Source: Stentor roeselii (taxonomy: Eukaryota > Ciliophora > Heterotrichea > Heterotrichida > Stentoridae). Taken from it: a DNA stretch of 64,000 nt. The notes below the pieces were generated by a model. That model was not told the origin of the DNA. It saw only the letters and a program-made list of their open reading frames with translations, and ran no database searches. The stretch is taken from positions 62,001-126,000 of the forward strand of contig RSEH01000063.1 of assembly GCA_006503475.1 (NCBI GenBank), written 5' to 3'. Shown in pieces: positions 2,465 to 62,131 of this stretch (the first letter of the stretch is position 1; the number at the start of each line of letters is the position of its first letter). The translations under genes were made by a program, and so were the position numbers.

Positions 2465-3667
2465 ATGTTCATATTTGCTTTGGTATCACTGGTTTCCAGT
2501 CAGTTTTTAATTGAACTGAACCAGCCGAAGGACTCTTTTCGTTCTTTCGTGATTTCTAAGCTGAACAGGCCTTTGTTGAAAGGTGAAAGTAAACTTTACA
2601 ATCATAAAGAAGTAATGAAAAAATAGTTCTATTATTCAGGTTTCTTGCAAATTGGGACTCCTTTGCAGAACTTTTCGTTGATTATTGATTCTGGAAGTTC
2701 TGTAATTGATAAACAGTACACCTGGGTTGAGAAATTTAATTGTTCTGAATGTAGTTCTTTTAAACATCAATTTAACCCTTCTAAGTCAAATTCTTACTCA
2801 AGTCAGAATAAAAGTGTTCGCTTTAGCGTATTGGATAAATAGTATGGAGATGGCTCTTGGGCTGAGGGAACTTTGTCTAAGGATTTTATGTCGATTGGAG
2901 ATGTCAATGGTTTGGCTGCTGATGCTTATTTTGTTCTAGCTGAACATGATAATATGACTAGTGCAAGCGATTCTGATGGCCTGCTTGGACTTGCTTTTAA
3001 CACTTTGAGTGATGGGTATGATACACTAGTTGACAGTTTATTCAAGGCTGGCGCTATAAAAAAAAGGATCTTCGCTCTATACCTTAACAGACTAGGCCAA
3101 ATCGGAGACAAAGAAGGCTACGGAGAGAAGCCGAGTTCTCTCGAAATCGGAACATATAACATTAAGAAATACGCCGATGCAGACTCTTTAATGATTACTC
3201 AAGATATCGAAAAATCAAGTGGTTTCTGGAAGGCAAGAGTAAATTTCGAATTCATGGACTTAGAATTAAAACAAGTTCCAGTCATTTATGACTCAGGAAC
3301 TACTCTGGTTATAGTTGACCAGAACTCATACATGAACATGTTTGAGTACTTGATTGACTCTCATACCTGCGTCGACTATGGACTTATTATCTGTGAATGT
3401 GGCAGTCGGGATGATATGCCTTCTCTGAAATTTTATATAAAGGGCCATAAACTTGAAATACCTGCTGACCGGGCCTGGTACAGTGAAGGAAAATATTGTA
3501 TGTTGCTTGTGCAGCAGGCAAATATAGATTTCTGGATACTTGGATCTTTATTCTTGCAAAACTTTTATACTATACATGATATGGATAACGCCCAGATTAC
3601 ATTTGCTGTAGCTAAGGAATCGTTTTCAACTTTAGTGGCATTTGTATCAATGCTGCTGGTTTTATAG
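2465..3667 (+). CDS. Secreted pepsin-family aspartyl protease (A1), three 15-nt introns
   Basis: The frame is continuous (385 residues) only after removing three 15-nt introns: 2612-2626, 2702-2716 and 2828-2842. The joins restore family motifs exactly: DSGSS|YTWVEKF at the first catalytic Asp and RFS|YGDGSWAEGTL at the flap. The second catalytic motif is IYDSGTT, and near the C-terminus FWILGSLFLQNFY matches the family ILG..F...Y block. The N-terminus (MFIFALVSLVSS) is a signal peptide, and the hydrophobic C-terminal tail (STLVAFVSMLLVL) could be a GPI-anchor signal or simple membrane anchor. Likely a digestive-vacuole, lysosomal or surface endopeptidase. Two introns end in TAG and one in CAG; each carries an in-frame stop, so unspliced mRNA would be truncated. 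Confidence 0.93.
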
Positions 3668-5379: not shown

Positions 5380-8300
5380 TTAACTAAATTTCTTTTTGCG
5401 CGCTTTGAGACCTTTAAGAACTCCTAGTTTCGCCTTGTCCACCACTTTCGAGAGTTTTCCAGAAGATTTTTCAGATTTTCTTTTATTTAGAATATCAGGA
5501 GTGTACTGAACAAAAGACATCGGCTTGTTTTTTTTCGAGTTTTTCAAGTTTTTCGATATTTTTTCAGTATTTTCATCAATTTTTCGCTTTTTCTTCGGCT
5601 TGTCGCAGTCAGAACTTAACTCGTCGTCATCTTCATTGAATACAAATTTTTCTCCTTGCATGTGCTGGTCTTGAAGCTTTACAATTTTTTTCTTCTTTTT
5701 TTGAGTGGCTGGCAAGTCGAGAGGGTTCATGAAATGGAATTCCGGAGGAGCTTTTTCAGTTTTTTCAGCTTTTTCTCTGATATTTCCGACTTTTTCTTCA
5801 TCGATTTGCATGTCGTCATCACTTTTTCCTCCCTTTTTCGTTGATTTCTTAGCTTTTTTCTTACTTTCACGGAAGATGTGATGTAAAAGTTTTAAATGTT
5901 CAGAAGGAAAAAGTTTTACCATTGTTTCGAATCCACATTTTTTTATGAGTTTTTCAATGAGGAACTTTATCAAGTTCTTTAAATTTCCAACAATTTCGTT
6001 ATTTTTCAAGAAGATTCCATTCACGATGCTTTCAGACAGGATACTTGCTGAGTTAGGGGTTAAGACTTGCACGATTCCTTTTAAAAATTTTAGGGAGGAC
6101 CTGACTACTTCTTTGCTGTTGTCCTTTAGCATCAGGACCACTACGGAGGCTAGGTTGAAAACGGCTGAGTCTTGCTCTTCAGTTGACTGGAACATTGATC
6201 TGGACTGCCCGAATGAGTAGTGCTTTACTAGAACCTTCAGGACTTCGACTGAGGCGGATTTCGTGTTGTCGATCTCGGATGCAAGGCCTGCCAAGACAGA
6301 GTTGTAGAGGTTCATGAAAAGGTTTTGGTCAAATAGTTTGTCGAATAAGGCGAATAAGCATGATTTGCTGACGTCTCGGGTTTTGTGGCTCTGGCCTTTG
6401 AGACAGTGCATTACTTCTATCAAGTACTTGTTCAGCATCGGCAGCACTCGTTCAACAGGAAAACGAATTAAAAGCCCTTGGTACACTTTAAGCCTTTCTT
6501 TCCTAGCAACTTCACTACAAAACTTGACCTCACTGCTAAAAAGAAGAGACTCAACAAGTGCCTCATCAACCAAAATCAAGCTTTTAATGACTCTATACGC
6601 TTTTTTCTGGTCTTTCCCCTCCGAGCTTCCCATATAAGTAGACAAAAATCGTATCAAAACATCTTTATCCGAATTCTCAAGTGAAGAAAGCTTAGAACTA
6701 ACTCTAACAAGAAGATCCAGTAGAAGTTGTCCTTCATTCGACTTATTTCCTTGCCGTGCTTCTAAAGTCTTCTGTATCAATCTTTTGCACATTTTATCAG
6801 CATAATTACATGACATTGGAAAGTTTTTCAAAAAAGTAAGAATCGGTTTATCCGGGCTTGCCAAGTAATTATTAAACAAAATAGGAACAATTTTATCTTC
6901 AACTTCCGTAAAAATCTTCAAGTTATTCTTCTTCAAACACCTATCAAGTCCTAAAATGACACTAGCTCTAATATCATTAGACTTTCCCATGACCTTAGTC
7001 AGCAAAGGTAATTTCCCCTGAAGTGCTTCCTGTTGTTGTGAGTTCCAAGTTTTCATATCACAAAACGATGGAAAGCAAGCCCATATCTGATTAATAAGAA
7101 TCGAGTACTTCTTTCCAGAGGCAATAAGACCCTGAGCCAAGTAGTTATTTTGAACGACTTCAAGTTGTTCAGCGACAGGTAAAAACTCTTGAAAAAAATA
7201 AGAAATATCTGAATTTTGCAAGTGACTCTGAATAACTGGCAGCAGCCATGACCTTGAATGTTCCAAATAATTCGGACTTTCAATAGGAACCAGATGTGGC
7301 CTTAAAGGCAAGATACTAAAAAACTGTTCACATCCAATCGTATTCACAACAGTCCCCATCAAACTTTTATACTTTTCATTATCAAACCACTTCAAAGCAA
7401 GTCCATCCAGTTCAATGATAAGTCTCTGCAAGACATGTGCACTTCCCAGTTGTTGACAATAAACTGAAATAACAGGAAAAATAATTTCAAGTATATCAGA
7501 AAACCTGTCATTAAGAAGATAAACCATTATCGCGTTGATTTTTTGAATTGGTTTCACGTTCTGGTCCTGAATGTTCAGGACATCGAAACTTAAAAGCAAC
7601 TCTTGAGTCGCGTCTAGTTCAGCTGCATGACCTGAATGAACACATCTGATCATCACGGATGTCAAAGCACTGCAAGCCGCATGTTGAACGTTGAATTGAT
7701 TTGAAAGTAAAAATTCAGAAATCGTTGAAATTCCTTGAGCGAGATTTTTGTAACATTCTGCACTGTCAGTCTTGTTGAAGTAGTTCAAAGCTTGGGTCAA
7801 ACATTGAACGTAAGCCACTTGAAGATCCTCGTTTCCTCCTGCGACAACTGGAGCTGAAAGGAGACTGGTTAGGTAATTTGATATCACGTCTCTTGGAAGG
7901 CTTAAACCTGCGAAAAGAGTTTCTAGAACTAGAAGAGCCTTGCATGTCACTTGAGATGACATCGTGTTCATGCAGAGATTTAAGATTTTATCTGTTAGGG
8001 AATATACTTCGAATAGAGGGACTAGTTGTAAGAAGATTGATAAGAAACTCAGGCAGTTTATGAGAGTCTCTGATTTTACGTGTCTTGTTTGCATTTCGAG
8101 GATTTCGGAGTATGTGGATGAAAGGTATTCTTTTACTTTTGGAACTGTTATTAGACCTTTTCGAAGAAGTTTGCTGAGAGATGAGCAGGCTTGTTTTCGG
8201 CTTGCATTATTAGCGTCAAGTACCAGGTCAGAAAGAGTGATAAATGTTTTAGTCTTTTCTCCCCAGGCTTCCCATTCTTCTTTAGTTATCACTTGAACTA

Positions 8301-18621: not shown

Positions 18622-19944
18622 ATGATATCCTCAAGAGAAAAAATAAACCTCTCTCAAAAAGTCTCTTTTAAAGACCAAAAAATCCAAGCATCAACTCCAA
18701 ATCCCCAAGTTTTTCACAGCCAGTCTCCATCAGACCCATACCTATCAAACCGATCAAGACCAGGGCGAATTCTTCTTCAATATCATCAACTTTCCTCAAA
18801 TTTTCCAGGCTTTACCTTCTCTAAAATTGCGCGATTCGAGTCAAACATATTCGAAAAGTTCAAAAGTAACTTCTACAAAGACCTTTCCCCTTTATTCAGA
18901 GCATCTTCGAGCAGGTCCAAAGAAACCGGAGAAGATCGAATCAGTTTAAACAAAATCATGAAAAATTACAGTCCAGTTGAAAAATCAATTCGACTTAAAA
19001 CGATTTCAATTCAAGAAGAGAAACATCGAGGAAAGATCAAACTGAAAAGAGACCAGATCTTCAAAAGTATTCAAATAGAAAAAAAAGAAAAACTCATTCA
19101 AAAGTTCAGAAAGTTCGAAATCCGCTACAATCGAAATGTAAAAAACATGCAGGACTCAGCAAGTGCAAAAAAAACTTGGACTGTTTTTTTGACTGTCTTG
19201 GGAAATGCGTTTATGCTCACCAAGGCCGTTGCGAAAAAAAGGTTTATAAAAAAAAAAGCGAAAATTTACTTGAAATGGCTTGAAGGGTTTTTAAAGTGCC
19301 TGGTTTTCATGAAAAGAGCAGCGAAAAGAGTAAAAAAAAAACTTGCTTTAGATGTAAAAAATATTCAGAAAATCACGAAAAATATCTGGTTTGTCAAATT
19401 TTGGCTTGCAAAGGCCAGAGAAAAAAATCGTAAAATTGTTGCTGATACAATTGATGAGATCTTGTTGAAAGTTTCTAGTTTTATGGTGATTAATCTTTGG
19501 AAATTTAAGGTAAAGTAAAGGCAGATCGTTCGGATTCAGAGGTTATTGAGAAAGGCGATGGCTGAAAGGAAAATTTTGATAAATAATTTACTGAATCATT
19601 GGGACTACACAGAACATTTCATGGCTTATGAAAAAACTCGAACAAAGTCAAAGCGACGAAAAGCGATGTTGATTCGAACAAGTATTCCATTTGATATCAA
19701 AGTTTCTATTTTAAAGCAAAAAATCAAGGAAATTATTCATAACCACTTAATCCGGGTACAAAACTACGAAATTATCAAGAAAATGAAAAAAAAACAAAAA
19801 AAAAATAAAAATTTCGACCTGATCTACTCAAGCTTTGAAAAACCGAAGAAATTAGATATTCAGATGGAATTCACCCCAGCTCTCTTCGAAACTCTTATAA
19901 AACAAGGGTTAAAAGAGAAAAAAAAGAGAAGAGAGGTTGTTTAA
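18622..19944 (+). CDS. Very basic IQ-like helical protein, one 15-nt intron
   Basis: Removing the 15-nt intron 19510-19524 (GTAAAGTAAAGGCAG) joins two frames into 435 residues. The junction LWKFK|IVRIQRLLRKAM creates an IQ-like segment. Residues about 110-420 are Lys/Arg-rich amphipathic helices with repeated Trp/Phe, like calmodulin- or centrin-binding cytoskeletal proteins; the N-terminal 100 residues are Ser/Pro-rich. No named family. Two other IQ-type proteins lie at 41284-43062 and 48314-49321. Confidence 0.75.
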
Positions 19945-52654: not shown

Positions 52655-55600
52655 ATGTCTCTCATAGTCCTATTTGCATTCATCTTGAAGAATGTTCATG
52701 GCGCATCAAGTGTACCAAAAATTCTAGGCTGGGGAAATGTAAATAAAATATAGGTAAAGACAACTTGCACTGGTTTTAAATTAGAGTTATACTCTGACCC
52801 TGGCCCATATAATGAATATGCGATTATAAGAATACTGAATTCAGGTACTACTCTTTATTATGAAGAGTCAATCAAAATGAATGGGAACCAAAGATACCAA
52901 AGTCAGATGATCACTTTCTTGTCAGTGGGTAAGTACAAAGCTCAAGTCTATGAACAAAAAGTCAATGGAAATTCAGGTGCTCTGCTTACTCCTACTTTAA
53001 TAGATACCTACACTGAATTTGATGTTACAGAAGGCTCAAGTTTATCATACATCAATGTAGTTGCATCTCCTTCAAGTGTAAGCGCATATGAAAACTTCGA
53101 TTTAGTCTGTACATTTACTGATGGGTGTTCTGCACCAATGACTACAAGTTCAACTATATATGTTTCTTCATCAACACTCACTCTTTATGGGACTCTTATG
53201 GGAACATCGACAACCTCTGGTATTACTTTCCCAGTTTATGCAACTGCTCTGGGGACTTATTCAGTTAATGTAACAATCGGAGCGATATTCGGTACAGCAT
53301 CAGTTACGATCCTGACAAATAGTCTAAATTACATTTCAATCACTCCAGCAGTATTTTATATCTAGGCTATTACAACCAAGTCTTCTATCTCTGTCCAGGT
53401 TGGCGTTTATAACAACTCAGGGTCGCTTTTTACTACTTATCCTTCTTCAACAATTACATTGGCTCTGAGCACTGCAAATTTATTGACAGGGTCAAAAACA
53501 TCAACTACCAGCTCTGGAATTGCCAATTTCACTTCACTAGGAATCGCAACTGCCGGTACTTATACCTTGACTGCATCATTATCAGGTGTTACTTCAGCCA
53601 CTTCGTCTATAGTAGTATCAGCTCCAGCTTTATATAGCATAACTCTAGAAGCTAAACCTTCATCTCCTTCTGCAAGGTTCCCATTCAATATAACAGCCAC
53701 TCTGAAAGATCAAGACGGAGATCCTTTTACAGCGTCCTCCTTGACTCTTTCAGCAAATCCTTCAGTTTCAGGGACTACTTCAGTGACGAGCACTTCATAT
53801 ATGTTCACTTTTACAGTTACTGCAACTTCTTCAGGGACATATACATTTTCATCCACACTTTCTGGAGTGACTGGAACAATAACTGTAGGGGTTTTAGAAG
53901 ATTCAATCTTAATAATTTCTACAACCCCAAGTTCAACAGTAAAATTTATTCAGCCAACTTACACCACAACAGCAATTTCTGTTGAAGCAGGTGTTTATGG
54001 AAACTCGGGGATTCACATACTTCTGGGATATTCCTTTACACTCACTCTTGAAATTACTCCGATCTCCTCATTTTCAGGCACTAGTACTTCAACTACTTCA
54101 TCAACAACAGGAAAATGTACATTCTCCAATATCAAAATAAACAATCCTGGGACATATCAATTCAAAGCCACTTACACCGGAATGACATCGGTACTTGGCA
54201 CGAATATCACAATTAGTCCGTTTACATTAGTCTCGATACAATTATCTTCTAGTGTAACTGAAATAAGTGCTTACTTTTCATTCACTCTATCAATTTCACT
54301 TTTGAATGAAGTTAATTCTGCATATACCACTTCAACAACTGTTACCCTTGCAGGAAGTTTAACGTTCGGTGGATCAACTTCTCTAACAACTTCATCAGGT
54401 TCCGGCACTTTAAGTGTCTATGGTATAAAACCAGGCAATCTTTTATTTACTGCTGAATCAAACGGAAAATCCGCATCAGTAACAGTAATAATAAAACCCA
54501 ATATAATGAAATTTGATTATATCGGCCCAACCGTAATAACTCCGTAGCCCACAACAACTTCCTCAGTCTTTGAAGTAAAAGTTGGCGTTTATGACTCGAC
54601 AGGCACCTCCTACATAAATTCAGGGCAACTTTCAATAACTTTATCTTTATCGCCATCAGGAACGATATCAGGAAGCAATCCGGTTAGTACTTCATCGACT
54701 TTTCAAAGTATTTTTACAGGATTGTCAATTACAACTGAAGATACTTACTATATAATCGCATCTGCAAGTGATTTATCTTCAATCACTTCGTCATCATCAT
54801 ATACAATAATAGCACCAGTCCTTTCGACGATAACTGTTACATCTAGCACCTCAACTCCAACTGCATATTTCGACTTCACAATAACAGTAACATTAAAAGA
54901 CCAAACCTCTTCACTATGGACAACAAGCACATCAACCGACTTATCAGGATCAAACCTATATTCCTCATCATCACTCACCCAAACAATCACAGGAGGCACC
55001 GGGACATTTTCCGTATACGTGACATCCTCTGGTAATATCACAATGACAGCAACTAGTTCAACCATATCAGGATCCTTGACATTAGAAGTGAAACAACTAC
55101 TCCTAGTGGTCTCATTGAGTTCAACAGTAATAAATAATCAGCCAACTTTAACCAACAGTGTTTTTAATGCCACTGTGAAGATCAGAGACTATAGCGACAC
55201 CCAAGACCTGACATCCCGAGGGTCTTTCACGATAAACTTAAACACTGTTGATCTCACAGGAGCGACGACATCAGAGATCAACTTATCAGCGACTTCAAGT
55301 TCAGGGTCCGTTTCTTTCAGTTCATTAACGATTTCCAAGAGTGGAAGTTATAAACTCTCTGCAACTTCAACTGATATGGTCACTGGAAACTCATCAACAC
55401 TGACAATAGCAGACCTTGAATTAACGACTATCACATTGTCGAGCTCTAATCTAATCCCGACTATTTACTTTGATTTTACGATCACTGCGACTTTAACAGA
55501 CCAATCAGGAGGATCTTGGAGTAATTCAACGTTGCTTAGCTTGACTCCTGTGAGTCTGGTCTCGGGATCAACTAGTGAAACAGCGACAGGAGGGTCAGGA

Positions 55601-58600
55601 ACTTTTTCTTTATATGGGATAAGTGCCGGGATTTATACTTTAACAGTCAGCAATGGTTCAGTTTCAGGAACAATTGACATTGAATTTAAAAAACTTGCTT
55701 TGGTCTTTAGTTTATCTGGAACTTCAGTACTTTTTATTTAGCCTACAACAACAGAGAGCGTTTTTGGAGCAGTTGTGAGTATTAAAAGTAATGATAAGAG
55801 TTTGGACTATGGAAAAACAGATACTTTTAATATTCAACTTTCAATTAATAACAATGGACAACTGGATGGGGTGAAAAATGTGGTTTCTTCGGGAAATACA
55901 GCAAGTTTTACTTCACTTTCAATAACATCAAGTGGAACTTTTGTGATAACTGGATCAGGAACTGACATGATTGATGGCCTTTCTGATAGTTTATTGATCA
56001 ATGCAGCTGCTTTAGGAAGTATAAAAATTACCACAAATACAACAACTCCTTCTGCATTCTTTACATTTGAGTTAAAATTAGAACTGCTGAGTGATTCAGG
56101 ATTAGTATGGACATCAACAAGTAGTTTAAATATTGAACCTTCATCGTCATTAGGTGGGACCCTTTCACTATCAACAAGCAACGGTACATGCTACGGTTAC
56201 ATATATGCATTAACTTCAGGACCTTTAACTGTGGAAGTAAGCAGCGGGTCCGTGACTACCTCAAAAATTCTCACAATTCAAAAAGACATTTTAAAAATCA
56301 CTCTAGTCTCTTCAACTCCTCTCTACACAAATTCTTATTTCTCAATAAACGTGAAGGTCTATGACTTCGAAGGCAACTCTCTTGAAGACCAAAGAGGAAC
56401 TCACTTAATTGATTTATCAGTCACTCCAGGTACCCTTTTAGGTACAGTCTCAGGAAGTACTTCATTAGGTTCTATTTCTTTCACGAATCTTCAAATCACT
56501 TCCTCTGGGCTGAACACTTTAAAAGCTTCTTGCACTGACATGGTTCCTGATACGATGGATTTTACTATTACTGCCTTGGCTTTGACTAGAATTGAAATCG
56601 ATTCTTATCCGTCTACTTCTCCTGCCTTTACTTTATTCTCTGTCGTTGTCAAGGCCTATGATCAGACTGGTCTTTGGACCAGTCCATGCACAGTGACTTT
56701 GACTGGAAACTTGGAAATTGATGGGGATTTAAGTCTTAGTATCACTGAACAAGGGACTTTTGAGATTTATTGCAAAGAGGTTGGAAGTTTGAATTTGAAG
56801 GCTGAGACTGAAAGTTTTAGTCATTTTGTTGATATTGAGATTACAAAGGATTATTTGAAAATTGAGTCTTTGAGTAGTGTGGTGAGAGTTATTTAGCCGA
56901 GCTTTACTGTTGACTCTTTTGATGTTCAAGTTTGTGTTTATAGTGATGGACTTTTTAACTCGAAAATAGAACTTTATGGAAATTTTTATGTGCAGCTGAG
57001 TTTGGATAATTCTGGAAGTTTAAGTGGAAGTGATGCAGGAAGTACGGTTAATGGTTGTGTTGATTTTTCTGGATTGAAAGTTAGTAGTCCTGGGGTATTT
57101 GTACTTACAGCCACAAATCAATATTCATACCCATTTTCTTATTCAAGTTTGACAATAAATTCTCTAACTATCACCATAACATCAGACTACGACCCCACAT
57201 CTTTCTTCGACCATTCACTATCAATAGAAATAAGAGACTACCAAAGCAATCTCTACATCCATTCACTTCAAGTAACTTTATCCGCCTCAAACAGTATAAT
57301 CACCACGAATCCATTAACAACCTCATCCGGATCCTGTTCATTTTCCCTTTACTTCACCCAATCAGGCCAAATTCAAATTTCCGCATCTTCATTAGGCTAC
57401 ACAGGACAATTATCCCTTACAGTAAACAAGCCAATCTTAAAGCTTTCAATGATTCCTCCATCAGTACTTTTTACTTAGCCCTTCCTCGTCGTTTCCGAAT
57501 TTTCCGTTTCCATATCCATAAAAAATTCAAACGAATCTAAAACAGAGCAAAATTACGGTCCTCATTCAATCACCTTATCAATATCTCCATCTTTTTCCTC
57601 ATTCCCATTATCAAGCTCTTCATCCTCAGGGGTAGTTTCATTCACTTCACTAAAAATCACAACATCAGGAACCTATTCATTAACCGCTTCAGCGACTGAC
57701 ATGATTTCAGCAGATTCTTCTTCTTTTACAGTCTTAGACCTTGCCCTGACAACGATGAAGATGGCTTTTAACAAAGTGAGTCCTTCAGCCAATGAAGACT
57801 TTAATGTTTTTGTTGAGCTTTTTGACCAGCAGCCTGTTTATTTCTTGAGTGAAAGCTCAGTGAGTCTTTCAGGAGACTTAAGCATTTCAGGGTCGATCTC
57901 TGGAAATACGAGTACAGGGTTTGTTACTTTCGTGATTCATTGTTTGAGTCCTGGAAGTTTAACTGTCACTGCAGTGAGTGGGTTGATTTCAGTGAGTGAA
58001 ACGATTACTATCAAGCCTCAAAAGTTAAATTTTTCAATCACTCCTCCTTTATCTGTGAAAAGATTTGAAAGATTCGCTTTTGAAGTGTCGGTCTTTGAGA
58101 ACTCATTGACAGACTTGAGTAGTTACGGACCTTTCACAATAACTATCACTACAGACCCGTCGACTACAGTGGTTGGGGCCTTGGTTCTTTCGACATCTTC
58201 AAGTAAAGCGAGTTTTTCAAATATTCAGCTTTTTGAAATAGGTTCATTCAAGCTGGTCGCAAGTTCTTCTGACATGTCAAGCATTTCAACCAGTGCAATA
58301 ACAGTGAACATCAACTACGAGCTTTTAATTGAAGTGGAAGTTCCGAGTTACACCCCGATGTTGAAGTATTACTACCAGTTCCCTGTCACTGTCCACAACC
58401 TAACAAGTTCAGCTCCGTTATCTTCAGCTTCCGTGAAACTTTTCATGAATTCCACTCTCATCGCGACGCAAACTACGAACTCAACAGGCCAAACTATCTT
58501 CACATTACTTTTCCAGACTTTAGGAAAAGTCACTCTTAGATTTGAATGCGATATCGCTAGTCTTAACAAAGAACTTCAAGTTATTGTCTCTGATAATCAA

Positions 58601-61600
58601 GACGATCTTTGTATTATCGCTCAGAATGCTTCAGTTTGTATGACTTGTGTCCAGAACAGCTTTGTTATTAATGGAACTTGTGTTTGCTTCCATAATGGAA
58701 CATTTTCTAATACTAGTGGAAAATGTGAATGTCCTCCTGCTCATAATCCTGTTAATAATTATTGTATTGATTGTGGGTTTTACTTTAATGCTTCGGAAAT
58801 TACAAGTAATTATGACAGGAGCTTTAAGGTGGTCTGGGTTTACTTTGATCGTAATGTGAATAGGAAAAATTTGAATGGTTGTCAAGATATTCTTGTTAGT
58901 CCTGCATATTTTTTAGAACCTAGTGTCTCTTGTTTGTGGATTTCTGGAACTGTTTTGAAGATTGTGATTGGGGAGTATACTGATCTTACTTATGACTACC
59001 TTGAAATCGATAACTACAAAGTACAAGCAATAAGCGACAAATGCGATGTATACATAGAAGACCTTATAATTCCAATTCAAAAGCAAGTGAATATCACAAC
59101 TCCCTTCACAGAAATAACAGCGCCAGATACTTTTTCAATTGCATGCACAAAGTCAAACCTTCTGATCTCATCAACCCTAATAGGGAAAAACGTGACATAC
59201 GTCTGGTCAGTAACAATAACCCCCAACAATTCATTAGTTTCCACCTTCATTTCATACCAGACATCAAGTGCAATAAGCATTCCCTTCACAATGCTATCCG
59301 AGTCCATCCTAAATCTAACCCTAACAACCAAATACGAAGGTCTCGAGAGCACATACATTACAACCAAATCAGTAAAAGTAACAAACGATCAAAATCTAGA
59401 CGTTTACCTTAACACCCAAAGTTTAATAAAGCTTCGAGTATCTCAATCTTACACCCTAGTGGCAGGTGTTGACTCATCCTGCGGTAACAGCGAAACATCC
59501 TACACTTACAAATGGACCTGCAACGACAGTACTCTAAACATTTCAAATTTTCAATCAAATTCAACCCCAAACTCCTTGACCATCGCGAAGTACTCATTAA
59601 TTGCTTTAAAATGTTATACCTTCCAAGTACTCGCATCTGATGGAAGTCTTTCCGGAACTGCTGAAACTGTAATCTGCATGATTCAATCCGACCTTGTAAT
59701 TGTCCTCAGTCGGTCAAGTGGAAGTGTCAGTCCATCTGTTGACTTTATCGTGAATTCAACAGTCTCTGACCCAGACGACGCTTTAGCCGTGATTTCAACT
59801 GAATGGTCCTGCATCGAGTCTTCAACTTTCTGCCTCAACAAAGACAACTCTTCCCTTTCACTTTCCCAATCCTCAGGTAATCTTTCAGTATCCTCTCTTC
59901 GAGAACGAGCCTTGTACCAATTCACTTTAAAAGCCTTCACATCTCTAAAAGTCAATTACGCCTCTTTACTTATTTATGTGGACCCTTCGATAAAAGGAGA
60001 AGTTCTGATTTCAGGCCCACTTGAAAAAATCAACCCAGACTACATTTACAACGTTATTCCCAAGTTTACCTTACAAGGCAAGCCGGAATTCAAATGGTCT
60101 ATCACGAATGGCGAGGTCGATTCATCTCAACTGACTCTAAGCAACTCTTTTGTAGGTCTTCCTGAAGCAAGTTTAATACGAGGAACTGGGTATTTACTGA
60201 AAGTCCAGGTAAAAAGCAGCCAGTTTGAAGGTACTTTGGAAAGTCAAGTCAACGTCAATACCAACAAAGGACCTGCTTGTTCTGAGATCACTTATGAGAC
60301 TTCAGCGGATACTATTGAAGTCTTGGTTTCTGGATGTGTTGACCTTGATGATGAAGACTACCCTCTTGCTTATCAGACTGGAATGGTTTTTAAAAATAAA
60401 ACTGTCTGGGTCAATGCTCTTAATGGTAATCCTTGGAGTAAAGTTAAACTTCTCCCAAGTGCTCAGAAGGTCGTGGTCAAGGTCTGTGATGCTTTAGAAA
60501 CTTGCACTTTCATTGAAAAAGAACTGAAAGTGCAGAATCGTCTGCTGGAAGAAGACGATTTGATGACTGTCATGCAAGAAACAAGAGACTCTCAAAAAAT
60601 CCCGAATATTATTCAGGTTTATATGGAAAAAGACATCAGTTTTGCTACTTTTTTGTTTTTATATGAAAAGTTTTATGGGTATTTCAATGCACTTGAAATG
60701 AATCTTCAGAATTTTCAGATGTTTTCGAATTGCTTGAATTGTATCCTTGCTTTGAAGGATAAAGCTGTTGATATTGTTGAGAACTCTACTTTTATTACCG
60801 CTTCTGTTGTTGGTAGGCTTGGAAAGAGGCTTAAAGGGTCGGATGTTGATGATTTGATTCGGGCTTATGAACCTTTTGTTAATTTCACATCGTTTGATGC
60901 TCTTAAAGATATGCTGCTTGTTATTGCTGATTGTTGGACTACTGATTTGACTCCTAATGCAGAAATTACTTATAGTGGAACGATTTCTTATTTTAGGGCT
61001 AAGTTGATTGGAGCTTATTACCCTGGAAGGCTTATGAAAAGTCAGAGTTTAGAAGTATTGGTTTCTAGGGAAACGGCTTTTAGTTACTCGAAAGTTTATG
61101 ACTTGACTGTTTTTGTAATTCAGGTGAATCAGAGCATTTATTTGATTACTAATTCAACGGTTTCTGCTGATTATGAAGATTACTATTTGCAGCTTAGGAG
61201 TTTGAAAGAAAGTGGAGTAAGTTTCAGACAACCTGTATCAATAACCCTAAAAAACTCCTTAAAACTATCATCAGCAAAATGCGATTCCACATCTTCATCC
61301 TGTAAAGTGACAAAAGTAAACAACACTCACATCCAAATAAACATCTACAACTTTTCAAACTACGAAATAAAAGACTCTGGATCCGCCTGCACATTAAAAT
61401 CGACTCCAGTTTACATAATCTCAAGTCTTTCATTTTTCTTCATAATCGCGAGTATCTGGGTGTATCTGAAAGACCGTCAATACAAATACGAGCACATAAA
61501 ATTCTACCGTTTTCTAGCCCTTTACCCCTTAACCTCGATTTTTATCCCTCAACACAACCCGAATCGCGTGATGGCCATGAGCCATCTTTGTGCCTGCAGC

Positions 61601-62131
61601 ACTTTCATGCTAGGAGCAATCGGATTCACCTACAACGACCTAGAAAAAGATCTAAATACCTTCAACATTACCATCGGAGACGTTACTTTCAAACATCTTG
61701 CTCGAGGACTCATCGGTCTTGGCCTTGTTCAAATTTTATCGATTTTCAATTTAATCGTTAAAATCAATGGAAATATTAATAAAAAGTTGGAGTATGTTGC
61801 TGTTACCATCAATTTTTTATTCACTGCTATTGGCGCTGGGGTCGTTGGAATCACTTGCTTGTTTATGTGTCCTGAAAGTTTTGATATCTGGATTGTTAAC
61901 TTTGGGATTTTTATTTGTTTACATTTATTTGTGTTTGAAAGTAGCTACTCTGGAATTTCGGTTTGGTTGGTTAGGAAAAGAGCCTCTGGTGTCATTAAAG
62001 TCACTAGGGCACCTGAGGATTTGACGAATTTTTCAAAGGATTTTAAGATTATTGCTGAAGGGGCTGCTGATACTTCGAGACATTCGAAGAAACTTGATAG
62101 AACTCAAACTAGGAGTTTTATTAATCCTTAG
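52655..62131 (+). CDS. Giant surface protein: Ig/filamin-like repeats, REJ-like region, ~5 TM (polycystin-1-like)
   Basis: One gene of about 3,118 residues. Stop-removing 15-nt introns: 52739-52753, 53351-53365, 54533-54547, 55727-55741, 56882-56896 and 57464-57478; two further stop-free 15-nt introns are inferred at 53939-53953 and 55127-55141. Signal peptide MSLIVLFAFILKNVHG; then to about residue 1900 alternating beta-rich repeats (SGTFSVY...G, GSYKLSATSTDM) rich in Ser/Thr and N-glycosylation sites. Next a Cys-rich stretch near 1940-2010 (CMTCVQNSFVINGTCVC), a region near 2090-2490 resembling REJ domains (YVWSVTI, YTYKWTC, EWSCIES), and about five TM helices near 2880-3055 with NRVMAMSHLCACSTFMLGAI comparable to polycystin-1. 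No PLAT domain seen. Likely an adhesion or mechanosensory surface protein. Confidence 0.85.
53939..53953 (+). other. Inferred stop-free 15-nt intron (GTAAAATTTATTCAG)
   Basis: Lies at the same repeat position as the stop-containing introns at 53351 and 54533; removal gives STTPSST|PTYTTT, matching the neighbours (GPT|PTTT). It ends in CAG, so it does not break the frame and retention would add only VKFIQ. Confidence 0.75.
55127..55141 (+). other. Inferred stop-free 15-nt intron (GTAATAAATAATCAG)
   Basis: At the homologous repeat junction; removal gives SLSST|PTLTNSVF. Retention would add VINNQ. Ends in CAG rather than TAG, so it is invisible to frame-based gene finding. Confidence 0.75.

What the first reader, a model, noticed from the sequence alone, without database searches (positions are those of the whole stretch)
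53351..57478. 15-nt introns recur at the same position in tandem protein repeats, two of them without stops
In the giant gene, GT...AG 15-mers sit at homologous repeat junctions 582-600 bp apart: 53351, 53939, 54533, 55127, 55727, 56882, 57464, all phase 0. Five end in TAG and break the frame; two (53939, 55127) end in CAG and do not. At about 56313 and 58056 the homologous junction has no intron. GTACTTTTTATTTAG (55727) and GTACTTTTTACTTAG (57464) differ at one base. This looks like duplication of repeat units with their introns plus sporadic loss, and it shows that stop-free 3n introns exist and escape frame-based annotation.
Basis: partly seen in the sequence, partly recalled or inferred. 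Interest (0 to 1): 0.8.

Follow-up and report, generated by a model that had tools for sequence, protein, structure and literature searches.

The report
Stop-free 15-base introns between repeats
A giant gene of a ciliate carries 15-base introns between most of its protein repeats, and two of these, like many in eight sister genes, contain no stop signal, so they cannot be seen from the reading frame and would leave no premature stop if the cell failed to remove them.

Summary
Confirmed and enlarged. All seven GT...AG 15-mers lie where stated, in phase 0; five end in TAG, two (53939, 55127) in CAG; two junctions are flush. A profile built from TAG junctions found 83 homologous junctions in nine paralogous genes of the same genome. 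76 carry a GT...AG 15-mer at the junction: 46 TAG, 29 CAG, 1 AAG, so 39% are stop-free. Stop-free and TAG sets are not distinguishable at the free positions. All 30 stop-free ones keep GTA and A at position 10, which protein-level selection would not explain. An aspartyl protease in the window has a stop-free 15-mer, 2702-2716, inside its catalytic motif; solved pepsins and a same-genome paralogue lack it. So stop-free 3n introns are very probably real; no RNA was available. A unit tree supports an old intron copied with the repeat, while stop status shows no phylogenetic signal. Stop-free 3n introns and repeat-junction intron arrays are known in other ciliates; this is a new variant and a natural test of translational control of splicing.

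The parts
52655..62131 (+). giant gene; spliced product 3118 aa, tandem two-domain repeats followed by a C-terminal region shared with paralogues
52739..52753 (+). N-terminal 15-nt intron GTAAATAAAATATAG, phase 0, TAG (outside the repeats, not in the finding)
53351..53365 (+). junction intron GTATTTTATATCTAG, TAG
53939..53953 (+). junction intron GTAAAATTTATTCAG, stop-free (VKFIQ if retained); removal leaves this junction 2 aa longer than the profile
54533..54547 (+). junction intron GTAATAACTCCGTAG, TAG, no A at position 10
55127..55141 (+). junction intron GTAATAAATAATCAG, stop-free (VINNQ if retained)
55727..55741 (+). junction intron GTACTTTTTATTTAG, TAG
56317..56318 (+). homologous junction without intron (SST/PLYTNS), flush
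56882..56896 (+). junction intron GTGAGAGTTATTTAG, TAG, the only one of 76 with GTG
57464..57478 (+). junction intron GTACTTTTTACTTAG, TAG
58051..58052 (+). last junction, no intron; also absent at the matching last junction of C50, C490 and C264a
2702..2716 (+). stop-free 15-nt intron GTAATTGATAAACAG (VIDKQ) inside the catalytic motif DSGSS/YTW of a pepsin-family aspartyl protease, 2465-3667; independent support that stop-free introns exist in this genome

Best explanation
The 15-mers are 15-nt spliceosomal introns of a ciliate with the standard code, most likely a heterotrich. They sit in phase 0 in an inter-strand loop near the start of an immunoglobulin-like domain of a two-domain repeat unit. 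The ancestral unit already had the intron. Unit and gene duplication copied it, and it was later lost precisely at a few junctions. The spliceosome recognises GTA, A at position 10 and a pyrimidine plus AG. Whether that pyrimidine is T (in-frame TAG stop) or C (no stop) switches often, so about two fifths of these introns are stop-free. If one is retained, five residues of the type V-x-x-x-Q are added in a loop and no premature stop arises. Shown here: position, length, motif, stop-free count, flush homologues, tree. Inferred: the organism, actual splicing, branch point, order of duplications, harmlessness of retention.
For: Junction scan: 77 of 83 junctions have a net insert of 4-7 aa and 76 of those 77 hold a GT...AG 15-mer at the junction; the 6 flush ones hold none. 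GTA 75/76, A10 74/76; in the stop-free set 30/30 for both. TAG and stop-free sets do not differ detectably at the eight free positions (permutation p = 0.57). GTA is 16% of Val codons, CAG 37% of Gln codons and 35% of codons start with A in these genes, against 30/30, 29/29 and 30/30 here; the scan asked for GT, AG and (where several fitted) GTA or GTG, but no junction was lost by this except C264 12073, and A10 was not asked for. In eight of the genes in-frame stops outside the junction introns are four N-terminal introns of the same motif plus two at or past a gene's apparent end. Independent gene: aspartyl protease 15-mer 2702-2716; the four printed alignments to solved pepsins show a five-residue gap at that place, removal closes it in the two printed again and raises gastricsin 1avf from 107.1 to 116.2 bits; the paralogue at C30:116928 reads flush DTGSSYTW. 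The motif agrees with Stentor introns: 92.8% are 15 nt and 90.9% of all are 15 nt with A at position 10 (PMC9505925, section 2.1 read). AU content 74.7% here against 75.6% there. In the Stentor coeruleus homologue P0001 I saw no V-x-x-x-Q insert at a junction among the profile hits, most of them weak. Tree: intron presence 4 changes (shuffled 6.8), stop status 27 (shuffled 23.8).
Against: No RNA data, so splicing and its efficiency are not observed. 53939 keeps two extra residues after removal. Two of 76 introns lack A10 (54533 and C88 9126). C264 12073 has a 5-residue insert that is not a GT...AG 15-mer at the junction. Only 5 of 80 inner branches of the unit tree have SH-aLRT of 95 or more, so the count of losses is approximate. 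In 16 stop-forced phase-1 or phase-2 introns predicted elsewhere the base before AG is T in 6, against 46 of 76 here (p = 0.10): weak, in the direction of selection for stops in phase 0. The share with a stop here, 46 of 76 (61%), is close to the 59.2% that PMC7858049 (passage) quotes for 3n introns of Paramecium, where stops are thought to be selected (though Paramecium has one stop codon only).
Confidence: 0.88

Rival explanations
1. The stop-free 15-mers are former introns that changed TAG to CAG and are now translated as five extra residues (exonised introns).
For: They read through in frame, and the loop at the junction might tolerate five residues.
Against: All 30 keep GTA and A10 although 16% of Val codons are GTA and 35% of codons start with A. 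Free positions vary as in TAG introns. Stop status switches about as often as random labels on the tree, so a one-way decay does not fit. The protease case would break the spacing of the catalytic motif.
Confidence: 0.06
2. The stop-free introns are optional: spliced in some transcripts and retained in others, giving loop variants that surveillance cannot see.
For: Splice motifs are kept, no stop arises on retention, and the junction lies in a loop. PMC7858049 (passages seen) proposes such a use of stop-free 3n introns in Halteria.
Against: No sign that the retained peptide is conserved: 29 different 5-mers among 30.
Confidence: 0.2
3. TAG is read as an amino acid here (for example Gln) and all 15-mers are coding inserts.
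For: TAG and CAG differ at one base and sit at the same place.
Against: Outside the 76 junction introns, eight genes (27,466 codons) hold 5 TAG, 0 TAA and 1 TGA in frame; four TAG are N-terminal introns of the same motif, and the other TAG and the TGA lie at or past the apparent end of gene C88.
Confidence: 0.01
4. The introns were inserted repeatedly and independently at the same site of each repeat, rather than copied with it.
For: Intron sequences show no similarity that follows unit relatedness (rho -0.06), and unit trees are weakly supported.
Against: One site, one phase, one length in 76 of 83 junctions of nine genes, with few presence changes on the tree. The free positions may simply be saturated.
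Confidence: 0.1

Closest known systems
15-nt introns of heterotrich ciliates (Stentor, Blepharisma)
   Same: Length 15, GT...AG, A at position 10, about 75% AU (Stentor: PMC9505925 section 2.1 read; heterotrich length: PMC9942806 and PMC11441545 passages)
   Different: Here they recur at homologous repeat junctions, and stop-free members are counted by homology, not by a broken frame
Stop-free 3n introns of other ciliates
   Same: Length divisible by three and no in-frame stop. Selected against in Paramecium (PMC5485702, PMC5014332 passages); common in Halteria, where 12.8% of 3n introns hold a stop (PMC7858049 passages)
   Different: About 95% of heterotrich introns are reported as 15 nt (PMC11441545 passage), so avoiding length 3n is hardly an option; stop status here has no phylogenetic signal
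Tetrahymena LRR genes with tandem 90-bp exons
   Same: Arrays of equal exons separated by introns of one phase, explained by unit duplication (PMC6564038 passages)
   Different: Phase 0 instead of 2, exons of about 570-585 bp, immunoglobulin-like units, 15-nt introns
Invasin/intimin-type immunoglobulin-like repeats
   Same: AlphaFold model of window 56024-56602 (pLDDT 89.7) gives two beta-sandwiches; first PDB hits are intimin, InvE and InvD
   Different: Fold resemblance only (TM by query length 0.28-0.55 in the 50 rows shown); Pfam finds no family in this stretch

Membership tests
heterotrich 15-nt spliceosomal introns | length 15 (or 16) nt with GT...AG | tested here: met
   76 of 83 junctions hold such a 15-mer; only 15-mers were looked for, and net inserts are 4-7 aa, mostly 5
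heterotrich 15-nt spliceosomal introns | A at position 10 | tested here: met
   74 of 76
heterotrich 15-nt spliceosomal introns | AU-rich | tested here: met
   74.7%
heterotrich 15-nt spliceosomal introns | removed from RNA | not testable with these tools
   no RNA reads; indirect support from flush homologues
heterotrich 15-nt spliceosomal introns | the organism is a heterotrich | tested here: inconclusive
   genome unnamed; standard code, motif and a Stentor homologue at 23% identity
stop-free 3n introns | no stop in frame with the upstream exon | tested here: met
   30 of 76 junction introns and 2702-2716
stop-free 3n introns under translational control (Paramecium type) | stop-free 3n introns are rarer than expected | tested here: inconclusive
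   T:C before AG is 46:29 against 305:60 at free positions, p = 5e-5, so C is not avoided; but T is 6 of 16 in phases 1 and 2, p = 0.10
tandem exon duplication array | introns of one phase at homologous repeat junctions | tested here: met
   76 of 76 phase 0 at one site of the repeat; the scan looked in phase 0 only, but 76 of 77 inserts are explained by it
tandem exon duplication array | introns inherited with the unit | tested here: inconclusive
   presence follows the tree (4 against 6.8 shuffled, 0 of 1000 as low), tree support low

The most novel reading that the evidence does not exclude
In this lineage, where nearly all introns are probably 15 nt and so 3n, in-frame stops in introns are not under selection at all: TAG versus CAG at the 3' splice site is a neutral choice, retention is not policed by translation, and the fidelity of splicing rests on the splice signals alone.
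Probability: 0.35. Interest if true: 0.75.

Novelty: new variant of a known kind. Interest (0 to 1): 0.55.

Why it matters
Any annotation that finds introns only because they break a frame will miss about two fifths of such phase-0 introns and, if the same base profile holds, about two thirds in phase 1, inserting false 5-residue peptides even into catalytic motifs. The arrays also give a controlled natural experiment: dozens of introns at the same place of the same repeats, some with a stop and some without, so retention rates of TAG and CAG junctions in one transcript would directly test whether translation polices splicing in heterotrichs.

Tried and rejected
TAG as a sense codon, chance, and near-identical introns as a trace of duplication were rejected. 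Whether phase-0 T before AG exceeds that of other phases stayed inconclusive (6 of 16 against 46 of 76). Those 16 are predictions of my own simple gene finder, out of 18 in phases 1 and 2; the 2 without an in-frame stop were dropped; four of the 16 lie in a low-scoring gene or have a weak motif (window 22771, 22873, 49904, 63013). Not in the 83 junctions: three further CAG junction introns (C264 814 and 1990 below the 25-bit cut; L019 minus strand 1957), and one weak hit each (27-41 bits) in five other paralogue loci that I did not put into the table, of which L012, L014, L016 and L017 are flush and L019 is the CAG case just named; L010 (C262) also showed a third hit at 26.0 bits that is absent. 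Pfam gave no family above its cut-off for the repeat units. P0002 and P0003, two weaker protein hits, were not followed. Slabodnick 2017 and Jaillon 2008 were not seen (the first is not held; the second is known to me through papers that cite it). Searches showed no title or abstract on such arrays in a heterotrich, but listed 20 of 59, 20 of 675, 6 of 6, 12 of 180 and 10 of 17 papers, and the library lacks most subscription papers.
Full report
What is there. The seven 15-mers are exactly at the stated places and all are phase 0; an eighth lies at 52739. Removing all eight leaves a 3118-aa reading frame ending at 62131. Two homologous junctions, 56317/56318 and 58051/58052, are flush. The gene belongs to a family: the genome search listed 34 matches in the same unnamed 44.4 Mb genome, a lower bound, since 30 of 155 candidates were scored.

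Junction count. I built a protein profile from TAG junctions of five genes with their introns removed and scanned raw frames, stops as X, of nine genes (win, C50, C490, C264a, C264b, C119, C201, C88, C262; at least C88 and C264b are cut at the 5' side). At 25 bits or more there are 83 junctions. 77 have a net insert of 4 to 7 aa relative to the profile, 6 are flush. 76 of the 77 inserts hold a GT...AG 15-mer at the junction: 46 TAG, 29 CAG, 1 AAG. By gene, TAG/CAG/AAG: win 5/2/0, C50 7/2/0, C490 6/4/1, C264a 5/5/0, C264b 1/1/0, C119 2/3/0, C201 9/4/0, C88 9/8/0, C262 2/0/0. The stop-free share is 30 of 76, 39% (95% interval 29-51%). As the profile was made from TAG junctions, it can only favour those. 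Left out are three weaker CAG junction introns and single weak hits in other paralogue loci, four of them flush.

Why the stop-free ones are introns. Their base profile cannot be told from that of the frame-breaking ones (permutation p = 0.57). All 30 begin GTA and have A at position 10, the branch-point place of 15-nt Stentor introns (PMC9505925). The scan asked for GT and AG; where several 15-mers fitted it took those with GTA or GTG; it did not ask for A10. If they were translated, no reason in the protein would hold codon 1 to GTA (16% of Val codons), codon 4 to a first A (35% of codons) and codon 5 to CAG (37% of Gln codons), while the peptides are nearly all different (29 different 5-mers in 30). 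Removing them makes the junction match the flush copies in the same gene, apart from two extra residues at 53939.

A second gene says the same. In the window's aspartyl protease (PF00026) the stop-free GTAATTGATAAACAG at 2702-2716 splits DSGSS/YTW. The four printed alignments to solved pepsins show a gap of five residues at that place, drawn one residue further on, which is an equivalent placing. Removing the 15-mer closes the gap in the two alignments printed again and raises the best score from 107.1 to 116.2 bits. A paralogue in the same genome reads DTGSSYTW without a break at C30:116928; it is one of four pattern matches that fall inside protease matches, of 29 pattern matches in all against 14 for the reversed control.

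Not a code change. Outside the 76 junction introns, eight of the genes (27,466 codons) hold five TAG and one TGA in frame: four N-terminal TAG introns of the same motif, and one TAG and one TGA at or past the apparent end of gene C88.

History. On a tree of the 83 units (quick search, 5 of 80 inner branches with SH-aLRT of 95 or more) units of win, C50 and C490, and less clearly C264a, often group by position, so much of the array is older than these gene copies. Intron presence needs 4 changes (shuffled mean 6.8, 0 of 1000 as low). Stop status among the 76 needs 27 (shuffled mean 23.8, 977 of 1000 as low), so it carries no phylogenetic signal. The pair 55727/57464 proves nothing: 24 of 2850 intron pairs are that alike, similarity does not follow relatedness (rho -0.06), and the second sequence recurs as a predicted phase-2 intron of another gene.

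Place in the protein. AlphaFold (9 window rows, pLDDT 89.7) puts the junction, between residues 98 and 99 of 56024-56602, in the loop between strands 88-94 and 106-113. The first solved matches are intimin and invasin-type adhesins with immunoglobulin-like domains. Five retained residues there could be tolerated; that is inference, and the protease case shows that stop-free introns also occur where they would hardly be.

Are stops selected? C is commoner before AG than at free intron positions (T:C 46:29 against 305:60, p = 5e-5), so stop-free ends are not avoided relative to base composition. But the fair comparison is with introns in other phases, where T gives no stop: 16 stop-forced phase-1 or -2 introns predicted in 316 kb have T 6, C 7, A 3. 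T against non-T: 6 of 16 and 46 of 76, p = 0.10. The share with a stop, 61%, is also close to the 59.2% quoted for Paramecium 3n introns (PMC7858049 passage), though Paramecium has one stop codon only. The question stays open.

What is known. Stop-free 3n introns are selected against in Paramecium and yet common in Halteria, and repeat arrays with introns of one phase are known from Tetrahymena LRR genes (passages seen). Introns of Blepharisma and of the karyorelict Loxodes were taken from RNA-seq with the program Intronarrator, so stop-free introns need not escape such annotation (PMC9942806 and PMC11441545 passages). New here, as far as the listings of searches show, is the 15-nt junction array with freely switching stop status.

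Noticed in passing
window 2465-3667: Pepsin-family aspartyl protease with two TAG introns (2612, 2828) and a stop-free one (2702) inside its catalytic motif; 46 matches in the genome, with 24 TAG, 5 TAA and 2 TGA counted inside them in all.
   Followed up: partly
window 52739; C490 3184, C264 6193, C201 981, C262 8180 (gene-strand coordinates of the assembled loci): A phase-0 TAG intron near the N-terminus recurs in several paralogues, apparently just after the signal peptide.
   Followed up: partly
window 54533 and C88 9126: The only two of 76 junction introns without A at position 10; both end in TAG, so the frame demands their removal.
   Followed up: no
C264 12073 (gene-strand coordinate): A junction without intron but with a different 5-residue insert a little downstream.
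   Followed up: partly
C264 about 6058-6106 (gene-strand coordinates): Two paralogues lie head to tail with under 50 bp between stop and predicted next start.
   Followed up: no
window 19354-19368: A further stop-free intron candidate (GTAAAAAATATTCAG) proposed by the simple gene finder in a gene without Pfam match.
   Followed up: no
window 22771 and 22873: Two predicted phase-2 introns ending in AAG, an end seen once among the 76 junction introns; the gene scores low.
   Followed up: no
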